A DNA stretch of 64,000 bases from Isosphaera pallida ATCC 43644. GTDB taxonomy: Bacteria > Planctomycetota > Planctomycetia > Isosphaerales > Isosphaeraceae. The translations under genes were made by a program, and so were the position numbers. Of this stretch, positions 12,481 to 20,123 are shown piece after piece. The stretch's first letter is position 1. Every line of letters starts with the position of its first letter. The notes beneath the pieces were generated by a model. It worked only from the letters and a program-made list of their open reading frames with translations, had not been told where the DNA came from and did not search any database. Location: assembly GCF_000186345.1 (NCBI RefSeq), contig NC_014962.1, positions 62,001-126,000 on the forward strand, given 5' to 3'.

Positions 12481-14364
12481 TCAATCAACGTTGGATGGGG
12501 AGGCGAGCGTGGCGGCCGGTTGAGAGCCGTGGGAATCGGCTGGGGCGAGTTGCTTGGAGGCCGAACGCGCGCTGAGGCGGTCACGCAACAGCCTCAGGTC
12601 GGAACGTCCCCAGGGGGTCAGAAGATGACCGGCGGCGTAGGCAATCAGGCCGACGCCGATATGGAGAAGCAGCCGGGCGACCCGTTCGGCCCAACCAACC
12701 TGGTCCGGCTCCAACGGCACCCAGCAGGGTAGAACCAAGGTCGCAACCAGTAACGCGGCGACGCCCGCCAGCGGAGCGCTCAAGGCGCGACGGGCGAACT
12801 CGCCGGCGTCGATTTCCAAACGTCTCCAAAGATACCATCCTGGCGCGATCAAGTTGGAGAACAAGGTGGTCAGCACCGTGCCCCAGATGACACCCGAGAC
12901 GTCGTTCCAAACCCAGGTTAGGACGAAGCTCAGCGGGAGGTTGATGACCGCTCCGATCAAAGCCGTCCAGGCGATGAACTTGATCTCGCCCATGCCGATG
13001 GCGGTTTGAACCAAGCCCGAGATTGCGAGAGGAGCCGCAGCGATGAGGAACAGCTGCATCAGTCCAGCGTGCTGACGATAGGACTCGCCCATCCACACCA
13101 CCAAAAACGGTCCGGCGAGCAGACCGGCGAGCAACACCGGCGGCAACAACACCCCGAGCAAAGCGCGGGTGGCGTCGTACTTGACCCGATCCAAGCCGTG
13201 ATCGTCCCGCGCCGCGGCGAGACTCGCCACCGCCGGCACCAACAACCCCGTGAGCATCCAGGCCATTTGCCTTAGCGACAAAAATGGTTTACTCACCGCT
13301 TGGTACACCGTGGTGGGCGGGCCGGGATCGGCTAGAGCGAAGCCCAAAACCGTGGTGTCCACCTTGTCGGCCAAAATCATGCTCAAATTCAAGATAAACA
13401 CATACGCGCTGAATTTCACCAGCGAGGACACGTCCTCGCGACGGGGGCGGCGGAGGGTGGGACGATAGCCCACGTTTTGAAAGAGAACCCAGAAGCCGGG
13501 GCCGAAGTACAGCACGATTTGCAAGCTGATCACCATCACCATGATAGTGAAGAACGGCACGCCGGCCCGCAGCGCCACGACCATGATGCCGAACCTTAGC
13601 ACGCTGATGATCAGGTCCAGCAACGGCAGGACCTCGTAGCGTCGCGCGGCCTGGAGCAGACTGGCCAAGATCATGCCCAGGCCGTAACAGGGCGCGGTGA
13701 CGATCTGGAGCCAGAGCAGCTTGACGATGAGCTCGCGGGCTTCCCCCTGATAGTCGGTCAGGGGCAACGCCAGATGAAGCACCGCCAGCAGAGCCAGGCA
13801 TTGCACCAGCGTCATGACGGCGTAGAACAAAAGCCCGCAGACCACGGTGCGATCGACCGCCTCGTGGTCGCGCTGGGTCCAGGCTTCGGAGATCCGCCGC
13901 GATAGGGCCGAGGACATGCCGAACTCGAGCAAAACCTGGAAGAAGCCAAAGCCCCAGGCGAACTGATAGGCCCCATTGAGTTCCTCGCCAATGGCTCCTA
14001 CGATCAAGGGGATTGTCAGGAACCCAATCGCGGCGTTGATGGGAATACGCAGCGCTACCCAGAAGGTGCCGCTGGCCAGGCGTCCCAGCACCGAAGGCAA
14101 CGCGGCAGCGACCCCTGCGCCCGGCTGGCCCTTCCAGGTTGGCGAGGTCTGGGACCCATCCCGGTTGGTCGCCGCCAACGACGCGGACGATGAGACGAGT
14201 TCGGCGTCAGCCTCCGCGACTTCGCCCACCCTGGCCGCTCCCGGTCGAGTCATCCGTTCCAACGACAGGTCTCCGGCATCCCGTCTGGCATCACTCCGCC
14301 CGCGCCGTCCCACGTCGTCGGCGACTCCCCTCCGGTGGGGCCGGCTCGGCTCGACGTTGGCCAC
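12481..14364 (-). CDS. Polysaccharide/lipid-linked oligosaccharide flippase-like protein
   Basis: Predicted MOP-superfamily transporter (Wzx-like) that flips lipid-linked glycan units across the inner membrane. 627 residues from a GTG at 14364. The first 85 residues are hydrophilic and low-complexity, so an ATG at 14253 (residue 38) is an equally plausible start. From about residue 95 there are 12 or more hydrophobic helices, starting with the typical LASGTFWVALRIPINAAIGFLTIPLIVGAIG; the central loops (YEVLPLLDLIISVLRFGIMV, YVFILNLSMILADKVDTTVLG) match the polysaccharide-biosynthesis export family. No polymerase or ligase sits beside it, so the substrate cannot be named. Confidence 0.85.
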   Translation of the reverse strand: MANVEPSRPHRRGVADDVGRRGRSDARRDAGDLSLERMTRPGAARVGEVAEADAELVSSSASLAATNRDGSQTSPTWKGQPGAGVAAALPSVLGRLASGTFWVALRIPINAAIGFLTIPLIVGAIGEELNGAYQFAWGFGFFQVLLEFGMSSALSRRISEAWTQRDHEAVDRTVVCGLLFYAVMTLVQCLALLAVLHLALPLTDYQGEARELIVKLLWLQIVTAPCYGLGMILASLLQAARRYEVLPLLDLIISVLRFGIMVVALRAGVPFFTIMVMVISLQIVLYFGPGFWVLFQNVGYRPTLRRPRREDVSSLVKFSAYVFILNLSMILADKVDTTVLGFALADPGPPTTVYQAVSKPFLSLRQMAWMLTGLLVPAVASLAAARDDHGLDRVKYDATRALLGVLLPPVLLAGLLAGPFLVVWMGESYRQHAGLMQLFLIAAAPLAISGLVQTAIGMGEIKFIAWTALIGAVINLPLSFVLTWVWNDVSGVIWGTVLTTLFSNLIAPGWYLWRRLEIDAGEFARRALSAPLAGVAALLVATLVLPCWVPLEPDQVGWAERVARLLLHIGVGLIAYAAGHLLTPWGRSDLRLLRDRLSARSASKQLAPADSHGSQPAATLASPSNVD

Positions 14365-14639: not shown

Positions 14640-16823
14640 ATGACCACCCAAGCGAACTCGGACGAACGTCTTGAACGGGCCGAGGTCCGCGAGATCCTCC
14701 GAAGCATCACGCCTCTCCGGGCCCTGGAGCCGGCCCGCCTGGAACGTCTGCTCGATCAATCCCATCTCTTGACCCTCACCTCCGGTCAATGGCTCACCCG
14801 CCAGGGGGAGCGGGATTGTCGGGTGTTCGTGTTGCTGCGGGGACTCATCGAGGTTTGGAATGCGGCCGTTGTTCCTCCCCAGCGTCTTGAAACCATCGAA
14901 CCAGGCCGCTGCTTTGGCGAACGGGCGGTTCTCCTCGACGAACCGCGTGACCGGGACCACCGCGCCTCGGATCGCGGGCCGGCCCATCTGCTGGTCATTG
15001 CCGGCGAAGTCTATCTCGAGCTGACCGCCCAATCGCCCGCCTTCGCTCAGGCGTTGGGCAGCCTCTGGCGGCTCAAACGCGGCGGGTCCGATCCGATCGA
15101 CAACTTCCTGGCCGAACTGCGCTATGGAGTGTCGCAGGGGATGATCCCCCTGTTTCGGCTGATTCCACGCTACCTTCAGCTTCAGCCGGCGCTGCATCCC
15201 CTGGCCAACGACGAGGGACGCATCGACTGGCCAGCATTGCTGTACGCTGTGCGTCGCCTACCCGACACCATCACGCGAACTTTCATGCTGTTCCTGGCCG
15301 ACGAGGTGCCCGCGCTGTACGGCCAACCCCAGCGGCTTTTCCAGGCAGTGGCCACTGCCACCCGCCCCCGCGCCACCTACGAGATGCTGCCGGGCAAGGC
15401 GATGGTGCTGCTGCGCGACGGCCTGTCCGACCTGCTAGACCTGATTTGCTGCATCTGCCTCTACGCAGTCGAATCGCGCAAAATCCGTAAACGGGTCGCC
15501 ACCCATGAACGCCTGATCCTCCTGGGCGATCATCTCGAGGACCGTCCCAACCTTGGTCCCACCGAGGCCGACCGCCGCGACCGCCGCGTCCTGGCCGAGA
15601 TGGGCTTCGACGAGCGGGATATTCAGGGGCTTCGACAAATCTGGCCCCGCGACCCCTGCCGTCATCTACAGGAGATGTTGGTTCAACACGAGGATATCGC
15701 CATTGGCTTACGACGGCGACGCGACGACGCAACCCGACGTCCCGCCGAAAGCTGGGCGGCCCAGATCGCCGCCGATTTCCGCGACCTCACCGGCGACGAC
15801 CCCCACGACCTGCCTCCCGAACTCGCCGTCCACGTCATCAGCAGCAACACCCACTCGGTCACCAATTGCCTCAGCCACTACCTGGCCGACCACGCCGACC
15901 GCATCCTCGCCTGGGGACGTGCCTTCCGCCCAGAACTCTACCAGGAGGAATGGTCCAACCCCCGCGACCTGCTCTACGCTTTGGCTCGGGACTTCCTCCG
16001 CACCCATCCCGACGAGGCGGCCCGCAAACGCCGTCTGGAACGCGAAGGCGGGGTGTTGCGGCGCTATGAAACCGCCTTCACCGGCATCCAGGTCGAACTC
16101 ATCGACCTGGCGGCCGTGGCCCGCCGTCCGGTCGATCCCGACCTGACCCTCCCCGACCGCGCCCCCGCGGTGATCGTCAACATCGACTTCGCCTTTGGAC
16201 AACAGGCCGAGGAAATCCTGGCCGTCTTAATCCTGCTGTTCCGCCGCAACCTCGCCAGCGTCAATATCCTGGGCAAGGCCGGAACCCTCGTGGGCAACCG
16301 CGGCGATCTGTTGGCCCCCACCGCCTTCCTCGACCAACACACCGACCAATTCCAACCCCTCGTCGGGCCCCAACGAGTTGATTTCCAACGTCTCCGCCGC
16401 CGTCTTCCCCACCACCAACTCCACCAAGGGCCGATGCTCACCGTACTGGGGACGTTGATGCAGAATCGCGTTCTTTTGAATCTTTACAAAAACATCTGGC
16501 GCTGCGTCGGCCTGGAGATGGAGGGATTCCACTACCACAACCAACTGGTCCGCTCGATCCGTCGCGGGGTTCTCTCCGACGACTTGGCGGTGCGGTTCCT
16601 CTATTACGTCTCCGACGCCCCGCTCCGCCCGGGGGAAAGCCTCTCCGAATCGCTTCGCGTTTTGGAAGGAGTGCCGCCGTTGTACGCGGTCACTCGGGAG
16701 GTGCTGGCCGGTATCTTCGAGCAGGAACGCCAACGAGCGGGCCAACCCCTCACGCCCCCGCCCGAAACGCCGTCGCCCGGTTGGGACGGCTTGGAGACGT
16801 GGACCGCCCGCTCAAGTCGGTGA
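14640..16823 (+). CDS. Cyclic-nucleotide-binding protein with nucleoside-phosphorylase-like C-terminus
   Basis: 727 residues. Residues about 20-140 form a Crp-like cyclic-nucleotide-binding fold (SGQWLTRQGERDCRVFVLLRG, then IEPGRCFGERAVLLDEPRDR, the phosphate-binding cassette region). The middle (about 150-480) is largely helical and not recognised. The last 220 residues show marks of the purine nucleoside phosphorylase/MTA nucleosidase fold: VNIDFAFG near 514, LGKAGTLVGNRGDLLAPTAF near 542-561, GLEMEGFHY near 625, and YYVSDAPL near 657, where the ME(G/T) pair and the SD aspartate contact ribose and base in that family. No DNA-binding HTH is seen. It is followed 30 bp later by a CAP-domain gene. 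Enzyme activity and ligand are inference. Confidence 0.7.
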   Translation: MTTQANSDERLERAEVREILRSITPLRALEPARLERLLDQSHLLTLTSGQWLTRQGERDCRVFVLLRGLIEVWNAAVVPPQRLETIEPGRCFGERAVLLDEPRDRDHRASDRGPAHLLVIAGEVYLELTAQSPAFAQALGSLWRLKRGGSDPIDNFLAELRYGVSQGMIPLFRLIPRYLQLQPALHPLANDEGRIDWPALLYAVRRLPDTITRTFMLFLADEVPALYGQPQRLFQAVATATRPRATYEMLPGKAMVLLRDGLSDLLDLICCICLYAVESRKIRKRVATHERLILLGDHLEDRPNLGPTEADRRDRRVLAEMGFDERDIQGLRQIWPRDPCRHLQEMLVQHEDIAIGLRRRRDDATRRPAESWAAQIAADFRDLTGDDPHDLPPELAVHVISSNTHSVTNCLSHYLADHADRILAWGRAFRPELYQEEWSNPRDLLYALARDFLRTHPDEAARKRRLEREGGVLRRYETAFTGIQVELIDLAAVARRPVDPDLTLPDRAPAVIVNIDFAFGQQAEEILAVLILLFRRNLASVNILGKAGTLVGNRGDLLAPTAFLDQHTDQFQPLVGPQRVDFQRLRRRLPHHQLHQGPMLTVLGTLMQNRVLLNLYKNIWRCVGLEMEGFHYHNQLVRSIRRGVLSDDLAVRFLYYVSDAPLRPGESLSESLRVLEGVPPLYAVTREVLAGIFEQERQRAGQPLTPPPETPSPGWDGLETWTARSSR

Positions 16824-16853: not shown

Positions 16854-17930
16854 GTGGTCCGGAGTTGGAGTTTCGTCGATGCCGCTCCCGCACGGTTCCC
16901 ATCACGCGGCTTCCGCCTGGAACCTCGCCGCCACGCCACAATTCCCCTCCTCCTCGCTTTGACCTCGGAGGCCGGGATCGCCCCAGCTTACGCCCAACGA
17001 CGCGATCCCTCCGGTCTGGAACCCGCCCGCATCCTGCATGAACACAACCGCCTCCGGGTCGCCGAGGGGTTGGAGCCGCTCGCCGCTAGCCCGGTCCTCC
17101 AACGCATCGCCCGTGACTACGCCCTAGAATTGGCGCGCCGTCAGATGATCGACCATGTGGGCGAGGATGGCTCCACACTCACCGACCGCGCTGCCAAGGG
17201 AGGATACCTCTTCACTGCGATCGGCGAAAATCTCGCGTTCGGTCATCAGAATGTCAAAAGTCTTATGCATGATTGGATGCACAGCCCTAGTCACCGAGCC
17301 AACATTTTGCAACCCGCTTATACCCAAGCGGGAATTGGGTTCGCGCGGGACACGCGTGGTCTGCTGTACGTCGTGGTCAACTTTGGCGCACCCCGCCAAC
17401 CCGTGACCGAAGGTCGCGTTGTTTCAGCCCATTCCGCGTCCAACCCATCCGACGCCGGAAAGCCCTCGCCTTCGCCCACGGCTCTCTTGAAACAGGCGAT
17501 CGACACCTTGCGCGCCCAAGAAGGAGCCGCGCCCTTAACCATCTCGCCTCTTCTCACCCGCGCTGCTGGTCTGCACGCCTACGACCTGGCTCAACGCAGT
17601 CTGGCCTCGCCCGTGGGCAGCGACGGAGCGACCGTCTCGAAACGGGTCCGCGACCTAGGTTACCGACCCCGTATCGTCGCCCAACTCGTCGCGCGGGGAG
17701 GCGCGACGGCCGAAGAGGTCATCACACGCTGGTCCGAATCGGCTGGGCCACGCCGCCTCTTGCTGGACGATCACAAGGAAATTGGTCTCGCCCGCGTCGA
17801 GGACGATCAAGGAGTGCCCCACTGGTGCGTGGTCCTGGCCGATCCCCAGACCCCTCCCTCAACCGCGCCACGCTCCACCCCCGAATCAGGTTTCAGCGCG
17901 GAGACGGTGTCGCCTTCACACCATCCTTGA
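16854..17930 (+). CDS. Secreted protein with two CAP/SCP (PR-1) domains
   Basis: Predicted exported protein, 358 residues. Residues about 27-47 read as a signal peptide ending APAYAQ. The first CAP domain (about 60-180) keeps the fold's motifs: LHEHNRLRVAEGLEPL, HVGEDGSTLTDR, GENLAFG and MHSPSHRANILQPAYTQAGIGFA. The second (about 210-345) is degenerate: SPVGSDGATVSKRV replaces the His-bearing stretch and WSESAGPRRLLLDDHKEIGLARV replaces the SPSHR region. No enzymatic function is firmly established for bacterial CAP proteins. The GTG start has no obvious ribosome site and lies 31 bp after the upstream gene, so translation may depend on that neighbour. The gene converges on another CAP protein gene. 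Confidence 0.8.
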   Translation: MVRSWSFVDAAPARFPSRGFRLEPRRHATIPLLLALTSEAGIAPAYAQRRDPSGLEPARILHEHNRLRVAEGLEPLAASPVLQRIARDYALELARRQMIDHVGEDGSTLTDRAAKGGYLFTAIGENLAFGHQNVKSLMHDWMHSPSHRANILQPAYTQAGIGFARDTRGLLYVVVNFGAPRQPVTEGRVVSAHSASNPSDAGKPSPSPTALLKQAIDTLRAQEGAAPLTISPLLTRAAGLHAYDLAQRSLASPVGSDGATVSKRVRDLGYRPRIVAQLVARGGATAEEVITRWSESAGPRRLLLDDHKEIGLARVEDDQGVPHWCVVLADPQTPPSTAPRSTPESGFSAETVSPSHHP

Positions 17931-18103: not shown

Positions 18104-19384
18104 TCAGTCGCGGTCGCTGCTCCAGGAGGACCAACGCAGCGAGCTCAGGACCACATTCCAAAGACCCGCGGTGGGGTTGGAGTTGGCCGAGGAGGAGATG
18201 GTGGACTGGAGACGGTTGCTCCAGGAGGCTTCCCAACGAGTGTCGGAGGTCTGGGCAACCGGCTCGGAAGCCGAGGAGATGGGAGCTGCCGGGGCGGGGG
18301 CCAGGGTTGGAGCGGGGGCCGGAGCCGGAGCCGGAGTTGAGACCGTGGGCGGCGTCACCACCATTGGAGCGATCGGAGCCGAACGGGCCAACGAGACGGG
18401 GGGCGGGGCCGAGTCGGACTGGAAGGTTAGGTCTTGAAGACGATAATCGACTTTGACATTCTCATTCGAGATGGTCACCGGGCGGGAGCGAACGATCCGA
18501 CCTTGAATGGTGGCGGTGACCTCATATTGTCCGGGGCGGAGCTGCATCTGAAATCCACCCGAGCCCCAGGCGTTGACCGTGGTGGTCTCGCCGGTGGCGG
18601 TGTTGCGGGCGGTCACGCGGGCATCGGAGATACCCTCACCCGGATTGTAAAAATTGTCGCCGTTACGATCGTCGAAGATCACTCCCAGCAGGTAGGGTGT
18701 CGTCTCGCGGCGGGCGAAGTGTTGGGTTACCACCAGCGGGCCGAAACCAGAGGAATTGGTGCGAACGATTCCCAGACCTACCTCGTTGGCCGAGTTAGAG
18801 CTGTTGGCGTGGGGCTGAAGCAGGTTAGCGCGGTGGCTCCGGTTGGAGACGCCCCAGTCCACAAGGAACGCCTGGTGGGCATGGTCGATGGACTCAGCGT
18901 AGGCGAAGGCGTTTTCAACGTCGTAGGAGCGGTCGCTGTAACCCACGCGGTCCAGCCGTTGTGAAGGAGACGAACCGTCCGAACCATCGTGCGCCTGGAA
19001 ACGATTGCGGGCCATGTCCTGACTGTGGGAATCGGCCGCTTGGGACAACCGAGGATTCCACGCCAGAGGTTGCTGGCTGCGAATCGAGCGGATCGCGTTC
19101 AATTCGCTGTTTAGATCAACCCGGAAGAAGTTGACTGAAGACCGCAATGAGCGATGGGCTCGGGGATCGTTGGCCTGATCTTGAATCCGGTTGGCCGCGC
19201 CCGAAGGATTGATCCGAGCGTTGTTGATCAACTCCAACAGATATTGCGCTTCGCTGGTGGGCTCCAAGTGACTGACTTGGGAAGCTGGAAACGCGAACGA
19301 CGTGGACTGAATTCCGCCGGTCATCAGCTGACGGGATTCCAGGCCATCGAATCCCATCACTCTGCGCGACTCACGCCGAGACAT
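18104..19384 (-). CDS. CAP-domain surface protein with LEPR-XLL-like N-terminus
   Basis: 426 residues from ATG 19384, preceded by GGGGGTG. The N-terminal RRVMGFDGLESRQLMTGG resembles the LEPR-XLL motif found at the start of large planctomycete extracellular proteins. A CAP domain follows (about 45-220): LELINNARINPSGAA, AADSHSQDMARN, FQAHDGSDGSSPSQRL, ENAFAYAES and NRSHRANLLQ. A beta-sandwich module of SdrD-B/Cna-B type comes next (about 230-320; GVIFDDRNGDNFYNPGEGI with a Ca-loop-like DRNGDNFYN), then a Pro/Ala-rich linker and a Ser/Trp-rich tail. It is convergent with the two-CAP gene. Likely cell-surface or secreted; the activity is unknown. Confidence 0.82.
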   Translation of the reverse strand: MSRRESRRVMGFDGLESRQLMTGGIQSTSFAFPASQVSHLEPTSEAQYLLELINNARINPSGAANRIQDQANDPRAHRSLRSSVNFFRVDLNSELNAIRSIRSQQPLAWNPRLSQAADSHSQDMARNRFQAHDGSDGSSPSQRLDRVGYSDRSYDVENAFAYAESIDHAHQAFLVDWGVSNRSHRANLLQPHANSSNSANEVGLGIVRTNSSGFGPLVVTQHFARRETTPYLLGVIFDDRNGDNFYNPGEGISDARVTARNTATGETTTVNAWGSGGFQMQLRPGQYEVTATIQGRIVRSRPVTISNENVKVDYRLQDLTFQSDSAPPPVSLARSAPIAPMVVTPPTVSTPAPAPAPAPTLAPAPAAPISSASEPVAQTSDTRWEASWSNRLQSTISSSANSNPTAGLWNVVLSSLRWSSWSSDRD

Positions 19385-20123
19385 CGTCACCCCCAAACCA
19401 TCGCGTTACCGCCCGATCGGGCATGAGTCCTGATTCGTTCAATCCCAGAGCCGGGCCTCCTTCGAGTCTCGACCAGGATTCCCTCTCGTCGTCGAACCGG
19501 CGGCTGGTGTGAGTGGAGCCGGTTACTCGAACCGAGGTCGTCTGGGAACCTTGGGAAACATCTTCCCGGCGGACGAACAAGTCATTAGCAGAGGCCGTGC
19601 CAAACCTCCGCTAACCTCACGCGATGGGGAGCTGAAATGACGAAACTCCCGTAACGCCAAGTTGTTGGAATCATTTCGAAATCGGACGCGGCGAAAAGGT
19701 AATCCTTCTCTTCCGCAATCGCCACCAAGTAAGATTCACCATATACGGGGCTGAACTTACAATTTGGGCTTATTGTAAACCGATTGTTGGGATTTTTCAA
19801 GTCCGGCTGGATTTTTCCTTAAGTTTGGTCATGAGCAATGACTCCCCGATCACGCGGCCAGAGTCGAAGGTCAACCACCACCACGCAACGCAACACTCAT
19901 CCGGTTGGGTTGAGTTGGGTGTCGCACGCCGAAGTCTCGCGTGACCTTTGCGGTTTCTTCATGCGGCTTGGATAAACTGACCGTGCCCACGAAGTTTCGG
20001 AGGGCAACTCTCTCGAAGACCCGTCATCCCTTGTGGTTGGGATGAAGTTTGGGCTCAAGCACTCAACGACATCCGCAAACGTCAGCGGATGGGGCGCGTA
20101 CCACATCAAGGAGTTTCTCCACC
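19385..20123. other. 739-bp intergenic region with one short palindrome
   Basis: Divergent upstream region of the CAP-domain gene (minus) and the phosphoesterase gene (plus). A 71-codon frame on the minus strand (19585-19800) starts with TTG and resembles nothing I know. At 19757-19778 there is a perfect 7-bp inverted repeat TTACAAT...ATTGTAA with an 8-base spacer, in a locally AT-rich stretch suited to a promoter or operator. Confidence 0.5.
19757..19778. promoter_or_regulatory. Perfect short palindrome, possible operator
   Basis: TTACAAT and ATTGTAA arms flank TTGGGCTT. It lies between divergent start codons, about 370 bp from each, in a locally AT-rich patch. An operator role is a guess from symmetry and position. 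Confidence 0.3.

What the first reader, a model, noticed from the sequence alone, without database searches (positions are those of the whole stretch)
14640..16823. Cyclic-nucleotide-binding domain fused to a nucleoside-phosphorylase-like domain
The N-terminus looks like a Crp-type nucleotide sensor with no DNA-binding helix-turn-helix. The C-terminus carries phosphorylase/nucleosidase marks (LGKAGTLVGNRGD, GLEMEGF, VSDAPL) in the right order and spacing, with about 330 unassigned residues between. A nucleotide-controlled nucleosidase or phosphorylase would be a new kind of signalling enzyme; such effectors are known in conflict systems, but I see no cyclase or defence gene next to it.
Basis: partly seen in the sequence, partly recalled or inferred. 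Interest (0 to 1): 0.72.

Follow-up and report, generated by a model that had tools for sequence, protein, structure and literature searches.

The report
Cyclic-nucleotide sensor fused to nucleosidase-like enzyme
This bacterial gene joins a sensor for cyclic nucleotides (signal molecules such as cAMP) to an uncharacterised enzyme family (DUF6909) whose fold and core catalytic residues match enzymes that cut bases off nucleosides and nucleotides, so it may let a signal molecule switch nucleotide breakdown on or off; neither activity has been measured.

Summary
Window 14640-16823 (+) encodes one 727-residue protein of Isosphaera pallida. Residues ~14-148 are a cyclic-nucleotide-binding domain (CNBD) with the canonical phosphate-binding Gly93-Glu94...Arg103 and no HTH. 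Residues 173-694 are Pfam DUF6909, function unknown, with no paper found. AlphaFold2 (pLDDT 91) places residues ~365-697 in the NP-I nucleoside phosphorylase/nucleosidase fold (Z 18-20), and a profile comparison supports this far above shuffles. The ribose-binding Met627-Glu628, Ser658 and catalytic-type Asp659 are invariant in 31 diverse homologues; residues that contact base and 5'-phosphate in AMP nucleosidase are not recognisably conserved. DUF6909 stands alone in many Bacteroidota. The CNBD fusion recurs in Planctomycetota, Spirochaetota and Gemmatimonadota and is compatible with one origin. AMP nucleosidase is its nearest NP-I subfamily among those tested; DUF6909 and short AMP nucleosidase did not co-occur in 148 Bacteroidota genomes, although clade confounds this. 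Best reading: a cyclic-nucleotide-regulated, AMP-nucleosidase-like N-glycosidase of housekeeping purine metabolism rather than defence. Fold and fusion are well supported; substrate, ligand and coupling are inferred. Rated a new variant of a known kind.

The parts
14640..16823 (+). Whole gene: CNBD-DUF6909 fusion protein, 727 aa (window = C2:62001-126000 of the Isosphaera pallida genome)
14679..15083 (+). Cyclic-nucleotide-binding domain, residues ~14-148
   Evidence: Pfam PF00027 E 2.6e-8; structure match residues 15-148 to cAMP-bound GlxR Z 18.7, rmsd 1.7 A over 132 residues
14913..14948 (+). Phosphate-binding cassette FGERAVLLDEPR, residues 92-103, with Gly93-Glu94 invariant and Arg103 in 11 of 12 fused homologues aligned
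   Evidence: alignment A4; position
15087..15734 (+). Middle region of DUF6909, residues ~150-365, fold not assigned; invariant Tyr202, Arg206-Leu207-Pro208, Arg242/Arg244, Asp267, Glu278, Lys281
   Evidence: no match to the AMP nucleosidase N-domain by hhalign
15735..16730 (+). NP-I (nucleoside phosphorylase/nucleosidase) fold domain, residues ~366-697
   Evidence: AlphaFold2 pLDDT 91, pTM 0.88; VIA-align Z 18-20; hhalign prob 92, E 6e-7
15840..15866 (+). Motif SSNTHSVTN, residues 401-409 (Ser401, Asn403, His405, Ser406, Asn409 invariant); first strand of the NP-I domain; Asn403 possibly equivalent to AMP nucleosidase Asn205 (inferred by eye)
16272..16307 (+). Motif GKAGTLVGNRGD, residues 545-556
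   Evidence: invariant G545 K546 A547 L550 G552 G555 D556; aligned with GKCGGL...GD of AMP nucleosidases
16509..16526 (+). Motif GLEMEG, residues 624-629: ribose-binding-type Met627-Glu628
   Evidence: invariant; aligned with VEMEA/IDMES of DeoD, MTAN and AMN
16608..16625 (+). Motif VSDAPL, residues 657-662: Ser658-Asp659, the NP-I catalytic-type Asp
   Evidence: invariant Ser, Asp and Pro661; aligned with VSDKPL of E. coli Amn

Best explanation
A cyclic-nucleotide-regulated N-glycosidase. The C-terminal NP-I domain binds the ribose of a nucleoside or nucleotide through Met627-Glu628 and releases the base with Asp659 as the acid, probably by hydrolysis in the manner of AMP nucleosidase, the nearest NP-I subfamily found. 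The N-terminal CNBD binds a cyclic mononucleotide through Gly93-Glu94 and Arg103 and passes a conformational or oligomeric change through the middle region (150-365) to the enzyme. The likely setting is purine-nucleotide metabolism. Shown here: fold of both domains (predicted), conserved residues, fusion in several phyla. Inferred: that it is an active enzyme, the substrate (AMP or a related purine nucleotide), the ligand, and the coupling.
For: Model pLDDT 91, pTM 0.88. Residues ~365-697 match NP-I enzymes at Z 18-20, rmsd mostly 2.5-3.4 A over 200-245 residues, with AMP nucleosidase 2guw at Z 18.3 (rmsd 4.2 A over 245). Profile comparison to NP-I: prob 92, E 6e-7, score 55.8 vs max 22.1 in 60 shuffles and 14.6 reversed. 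By subfamily: short AMN alone prob 81, two-sequence AMN set prob 50, DeoD/UP prob 2.6, MTAN 0.7. Met627, Glu628, Ser658, Asp659 invariant in 31 sequences; Met, Glu and Asp are the only active-site residues shared by AMN and its distant homologues (PMC9584410). Fused set is one side of a branch, 79/99 support, over several phyla. DUF6909 20/148 and short AMN 72/148 Bacteroidota genomes, overlap 0, Fisher p 5e-7; AMN-like over cut-off in 1 of 30 DUF6909 genomes examined, none in the window's own. All 20 fused genomes searched, and the window's own, carry a class III cyclase homologue. In Bacteroidota the gene lies within 300 nt of a same-strand GH3 gene in 28 of 65 loci; GH3 enzymes release AMP (established knowledge).
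Against: No member has been assayed. PF01048, TIGR01717 and TIGR01721 do not score on it. AMN's base- and phosphate-contacting Arg381, Trp383 and Lys436 have no conserved equivalents in the alignments, so AMP may not be the substrate. A larger AMN set (long plus short) gave only prob 34, and the whole DUF6909 profile against long AMN alone was insignificant (prob 0.5), so the AMN ranking is not firm. The N-domain of long AMN was not detected in the middle region. The DUF6909/AMN exclusion is confounded by clade, and Fibrisoma has both. The cyclase co-occurrence has no background rate, as cyclases are common in spirochaetes, and the cyclase in the window's genome has Asp where class III cyclases carry the base-selecting Lys (read by eye). 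The Bacteroidota form works without a CNBD.
Confidence: 0.5

Rival explanations
1. A cyclic-nucleotide-regulated NP-I enzyme with a different substrate or chemistry: a phosphorylase, or a hydrolase of another purine compound, not AMP-nucleosidase-like.
For: NP-I fold and ribose/acid residues conserved; AMN-specific base and phosphate residues not recognisably conserved; PNP and uridine phosphorylase structures rank at least as high as AMN by Z, though ties within 1 mean little.
Against: Profile comparison favours AMN over DeoD/UP and MTAN sets; the EGTADNYP stretch of Bacteroidota DUF6909 resembles EGTSNDYM of short AMN (by eye).
Confidence: 0.27
2. A cyclic-nucleotide-triggered suicide effector of an anti-phage system, like PycTIR but with a nucleosidase in place of TIR.
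For: CNBD resembles PycTIR's weakly (PADLOC E 0.003 here, 1.7e-6 for L015); nucleoside phosphorylase domains occur in conflict systems (PMC7159879); sporadic distribution, 1/199 genomes in the class and 11/392 in the phylum.
Against: No cyclase next to it: the genome's only PF00211 match lies 1.74 Mb away; the families listed around fused homologues are housekeeping, transport or ordinary signalling, though only 25 of 80 were shown; the relatives without a CNBD sit in syntenic operons with GH3, an M23 peptidase and sugar-nucleotide genes.
Confidence: 0.08
3. A catalytically dead NP-I domain used as a nucleoside/nucleotide sensor, with the CNBD as a second input.
For: Substrate-contacting residues beyond Met-Glu-Asp are not recognisably kept.
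Against: Glu628, Ser658 and Asp659 are invariant even in the highly diverged L001/L002, which is unexpected for a dead enzyme.
Confidence: 0.1

Closest known systems
Pfam DUF6909 (PF21850)
   Same: Residues 173-694 match the whole family profile, 378.9 bits against a cut-off of 27
   Different: The family has no assigned function and no paper was found; the Bacteroidota members lack the CNBD
AMP nucleosidase (Amn; long TIGR01717 form and short TIGR01721 form)
   Same: NP-I fold with Z 18.3 to 2guw; GK-x-G...GD, [ED]ME and VSD-x-PL motifs in order; an accessory region precedes the catalytic domain as in long Amn
   Different: No hit to PF01048, PF10423 or the TIGR models; base and phosphate contacts not recognisably conserved; fused CNBD
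Other NP-I enzymes (PNP DeoD, uridine phosphorylase, MTA/SAH nucleosidase, futalosine hydrolase)
   Same: Same fold, Z 18-20; Met-Glu and Ser-Asp positions
   Different: 10-15% identity over the structural alignment; single-domain enzymes
PycTIR (Pycsar anti-phage effector)
   Same: N-terminal CNBD that senses a cyclic mononucleotide, C-terminal enzyme; in PycTIR the enzyme degrades a nucleotide cofactor
   Different: TIR instead of NP-I; Pycsar has a linked cyclase gene (PMC11224242), absent here
Mycobacterial acetyltransferase Pat (4onu, 4oll)
   Same: CNBD fused to a metabolic enzyme; its CNBD is among the sequence matches
   Different: GNAT acetyltransferase instead of an NP-I enzyme

Membership tests
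Cyclic-nucleotide-binding domain (PF00027) | Profile score above the curated cut-off | tested here: met
   34.2 bits vs 27.5
Cyclic-nucleotide-binding domain (PF00027) | CNBD fold | tested here: met
   predicted model: Z 18.7, rmsd 1.7 A over 132 residues to cAMP-bound GlxR 3r6s
Cyclic-nucleotide-binding domain (PF00027) | Phosphate-binding cassette Gly-Glu and Arg | tested here: met
   Gly93-Glu94 invariant, Arg103 in 11 of 12
Cyclic-nucleotide-binding domain (PF00027) | Binds a cyclic nucleotide | not testable with these tools
   needs a binding assay
Crp/Fnr transcription factor | C-terminal HTH DNA-binding domain | tested here: not met
   no HTH family by Pfam; the rest of the protein is DUF6909
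DUF6909 (PF21850) | Full-length profile match over the cut-off | tested here: met
   378.9 bits, profile 3-535 of 535
NP-I nucleoside phosphorylase/nucleosidase superfamily | NP-I fold | tested here: met
   predicted model: Z 18-20, residues ~365-697
NP-I nucleoside phosphorylase/nucleosidase superfamily | Profile-level sequence relation | tested here: met
   hhalign prob 92, E 6e-7, well above shuffles
NP-I nucleoside phosphorylase/nucleosidase superfamily | PF01048 curated score | tested here: not met
   not listed at E up to 1
NP-I nucleoside phosphorylase/nucleosidase superfamily | Met-Glu ribose pair and catalytic Asp | tested here: met
   Met627-Glu628 and Asp659 invariant and in register
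AMP nucleosidase (EC 3.2.2.4) | TIGR01717/TIGR01721 score | tested here: not met
   not listed at E up to 1
AMP nucleosidase (EC 3.2.2.4) | N-terminal domain PF10423 (long form only) | tested here: not met
   no Pfam hit; hhalign of region 150-390 found nothing; a structural test of this region alone was not possible
AMP nucleosidase (EC 3.2.2.4) | Arg381, Trp383, Lys436 for base and 5'-phosphate | tested here: inconclusive
   no conserved equivalent in the profile alignments, whose register is uncertain by about 3 residues there; residues from PMC9584410
AMP nucleosidase (EC 3.2.2.4) | Hydrolyses AMP | not testable with these tools
   needs an assay
Pycsar effector | Linked cyclase gene | tested here: not met
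   only PF00211 match in the genome is 1.74 Mb away

The most novel reading that the evidence does not exclude
A cyclic-nucleotide-gated AMP (or purine nucleotide) nucleosidase, found in at least three bacterial phyla: a direct enzymatic link by which a cyclic-nucleotide signal sets the size of the purine nucleotide pool, without transcription. The standalone Bacteroidota family would be an unrecognised AMP nucleosidase that replaces Amn.
Probability: 0.35. Interest if true: 0.75.

Novelty: new variant of a known kind. Interest (0 to 1): 0.52.

Why it matters
It gives a fold, a candidate active site and a testable activity to DUF6909, a family of unknown function present in hundreds of genomes, and it describes a fusion of a cyclic-nucleotide sensor to a nucleosidase-type enzyme that no paper found here mentions. 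If active and gated, it would be a direct route from second messenger to nucleotide pool in bacteria whose cyclic-nucleotide signalling is little studied.

Tried and rejected
Sequence searches of solved structures with profiles of the C-terminal and middle parts found no relative; only fold and profile-profile comparison reached NP-I. The E. coli enzymes one at a time gave insignificant hhalign scores, though the EMEG motif (all three) and, with amn, SDxPL were in register; a family profile was needed. The middle region was compared with the AMN N-terminal domain: no relation detected. The first scan of genome contigs with the single protein found nothing; the alignment scan worked. DNA repeats in the gene are short two-copy matches of no note. 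Defence role: considered and given low weight. Literature searches for DUF6909, PF21850 and for a CNBD/nucleoside phosphorylase fusion returned nothing.

Full report
What is there. The window is C2:62001-126000 of a genome of 5,529,304 bases whose larger contig has 5,472,964; these numbers equal those of Isosphaera pallida IS1B (PMC3072084). The ORF 14640-16823 (+) encodes 727 residues. A GGAGA stretch lies just upstream of the ATG. Its neighbours are a divergent polysaccharide flippase gene (12481-14364, -) and a CAP-domain gene downstream (16854-17930, +); they suggest no partner.

Domains. Pfam gives cNMP_binding at 46-131 (34.2 bits, cut-off 27.5) and DUF6909 at 173-694 (378.9 bits). NCBIfam gives only weak sub-threshold hits to CNBD-bearing models. 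There is no HTH. In 12 fused homologues the phosphate-binding cassette keeps Gly93-Glu94 in all and Arg103 in 11; the Glu-to-Arg spacing of 9 is that of PKA regulatory subunits (from knowledge). The CNBD therefore looks competent to bind a cyclic mononucleotide; which one cannot be told.

Fold of the C-terminal part. A first AlphaFold2 model from 12 sequences (pLDDT 81) and a second from 31 (pLDDT 91, pTM 0.88) agree. VIA-align places residues ~365-697 on NP-I enzymes: PNP, uridine phosphorylase, MTA/SAH nucleosidase, futalosine hydrolase and AMP nucleosidase, Z 18-20, rmsd mostly 2.5-3.4 A over 200-245 residues, 4.2 A for AMP nucleosidase. The same list has the CNBD on cAMP-bound GlxR at Z 18.7. 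A shared fold alone shows no function, so sequence evidence was sought. A profile of the C-terminal domain (31 sequences) against a profile of NP-I enzymes gave hhalign prob 92, E 6e-7, score 55.8; 60 column shuffles gave at most 22.1 and the reversed alignment 14.6. By subfamily the AMP nucleosidases came closest: short Bacteroidota AMN alone prob 81, a two-sequence AMN set prob 50, long plus short AMN prob 34, against 2.6 for DeoD/uridine phosphorylase and 0.7 for MTAN. These sets differ in size, so the ranking is indicative.

Active site. In the 31-sequence alignment, Glu626-Met627-Glu628 and Ser658-Asp659-x-Pro661 are invariant, as are G545 K546 A547 L550 G552 G555 D556 and S401 N403 H405 S406 N409. 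The alignments put Met627-Glu628 on the ribose-binding Met-Glu and Asp659 on the catalytic Asp of NP-I enzymes. According to PMC9584410 the Klebsiella enzyme uses Asn205, Trp383, Met404, Glu405 and Asp428 for base and sugar and Arg381, Lys436, His188 and Tyr189 for the phosphate, and only Met404, Glu405 and Asp428 are shared with its distant homologues. DUF6909 keeps these three; Asn403 may match Asn205 (by eye). No conserved counterpart of Arg381, Trp383 or Lys436 was seen. The protein thus looks like an active NP-I enzyme of unproven substrate.

Relatives. The best-scoring 15 are from Spirochaetota, Gemmatimonadota, Planctomycetota and one MAG labelled proteobacterium, and carry the CNBD; the following ones are standalone proteins of about 560 residues from Bacteroidota. 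On the tree the fused proteins are one side of a branch (79/99), compatible with one fusion. In the window's class 1 of 199 sampled genomes has a match over the cut-off, its own; in the phylum 11 of 392. This patchiness suggests gain by transfer, or many losses. Some planctomycetes hold a second, standalone paralogue (L001, L002) that still keeps LEME and YxSDxP.

Context. In 28 of 65 Bacteroidota loci the gene lies within 300 nt of a same-strand GH3 gene (median overlap 29 nt), preceded by an M23 peptidase gene and followed by a protein of about 340 residues without a Pfam hit and by GDP-mannose dehydratase. GH3 enzymes adenylate acids and release AMP (established knowledge), which fits an AMP-consuming neighbour, but this is a hint only. 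Around fused loci the Pfam families most often met are ABC transport including glycine betaine, response regulators and Phe-tRNA synthetase (only 25 of 80 families were shown). No adjacent class III cyclase was recognised; all 20 fused genomes searched have at least one somewhere, with no background rate for comparison. The window's genome has a single PF00211 protein, 1.74 Mb away, and only one other protein with CNBDs.

A test of the AMN reading. In the same sample of 148 Bacteroidota genomes, DUF6909 occurs in 20 and short AMN (E below 1e-40) in 72, with no overlap (Fisher p 5e-7). Among 30 DUF6909-bearing genomes only Fibrisoma has an AMN over the cut-off. The pattern is that of one enzyme replacing another, but clades may produce it too, so it is support and not proof.

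Judgement. Shown: the fusion, both folds (as confident predictions), the conserved catalytic-type residues, the spread over phyla. Inferred: enzyme activity, AMP-like substrate, cyclic-nucleotide ligand, allosteric gating. A housekeeping role in purine metabolism is favoured over defence because the family at large has syntenic housekeeping neighbours and no cyclase partner. The kind of system, an enzyme gated by a CNBD, is known (Pat, PycTIR); the enzyme type and the family are new for it as far as the literature at hand shows.

Noticed in passing
L001:1408-3126 and L002:1408-3123 (planctomycete family f23): Standalone DUF6909 paralogues, highly diverged from both the fused and the Bacteroidota forms yet scoring highest on the Pfam model (about 690 bits); the same genomes also carry a fused copy.
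   Followed up: partly
Own genome C2:4603858-4604706 (L133, L134, L136): The only other CNBD protein of the genome: an 807-residue open frame with three CNBD matches in tandem.
   Followed up: no
Own genome C2:1820849-1821322 (L132:1162-3216, minus strand): The genome's only class III cyclase-like protein, 684 aa; Asp stands where the base-selecting Lys is expected (LIDFIGDE), so product and activity are uncertain.
   Followed up: partly
Bacteroidota loci L030-L094: Conserved same-strand gene order M23 peptidase - GH3 - DUF6909 - protein without Pfam hit - GDP-mannose dehydratase in about half of the loci.
   Followed up: partly
Bacteroidota genomes G598, G610, G626, G637 and others: A second class of AMN-like proteins (about 150 bits to TIGR01721) in open frames of about 400 residues, i.e. 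with some 130 extra residues.
   Followed up: no
L010:1492-3135 (planctomycete G107): A standalone DUF6909 of Bacteroidota type inside a planctomycete genome, likely transferred.
   Followed up: partly
window 16854-17930 (+) and 18104-19396 (-): The gene downstream of the fusion and the next, convergent one both appear to encode CAP/SCP-like extracellular proteins; only the first was confirmed by Pfam.
   Followed up: partly
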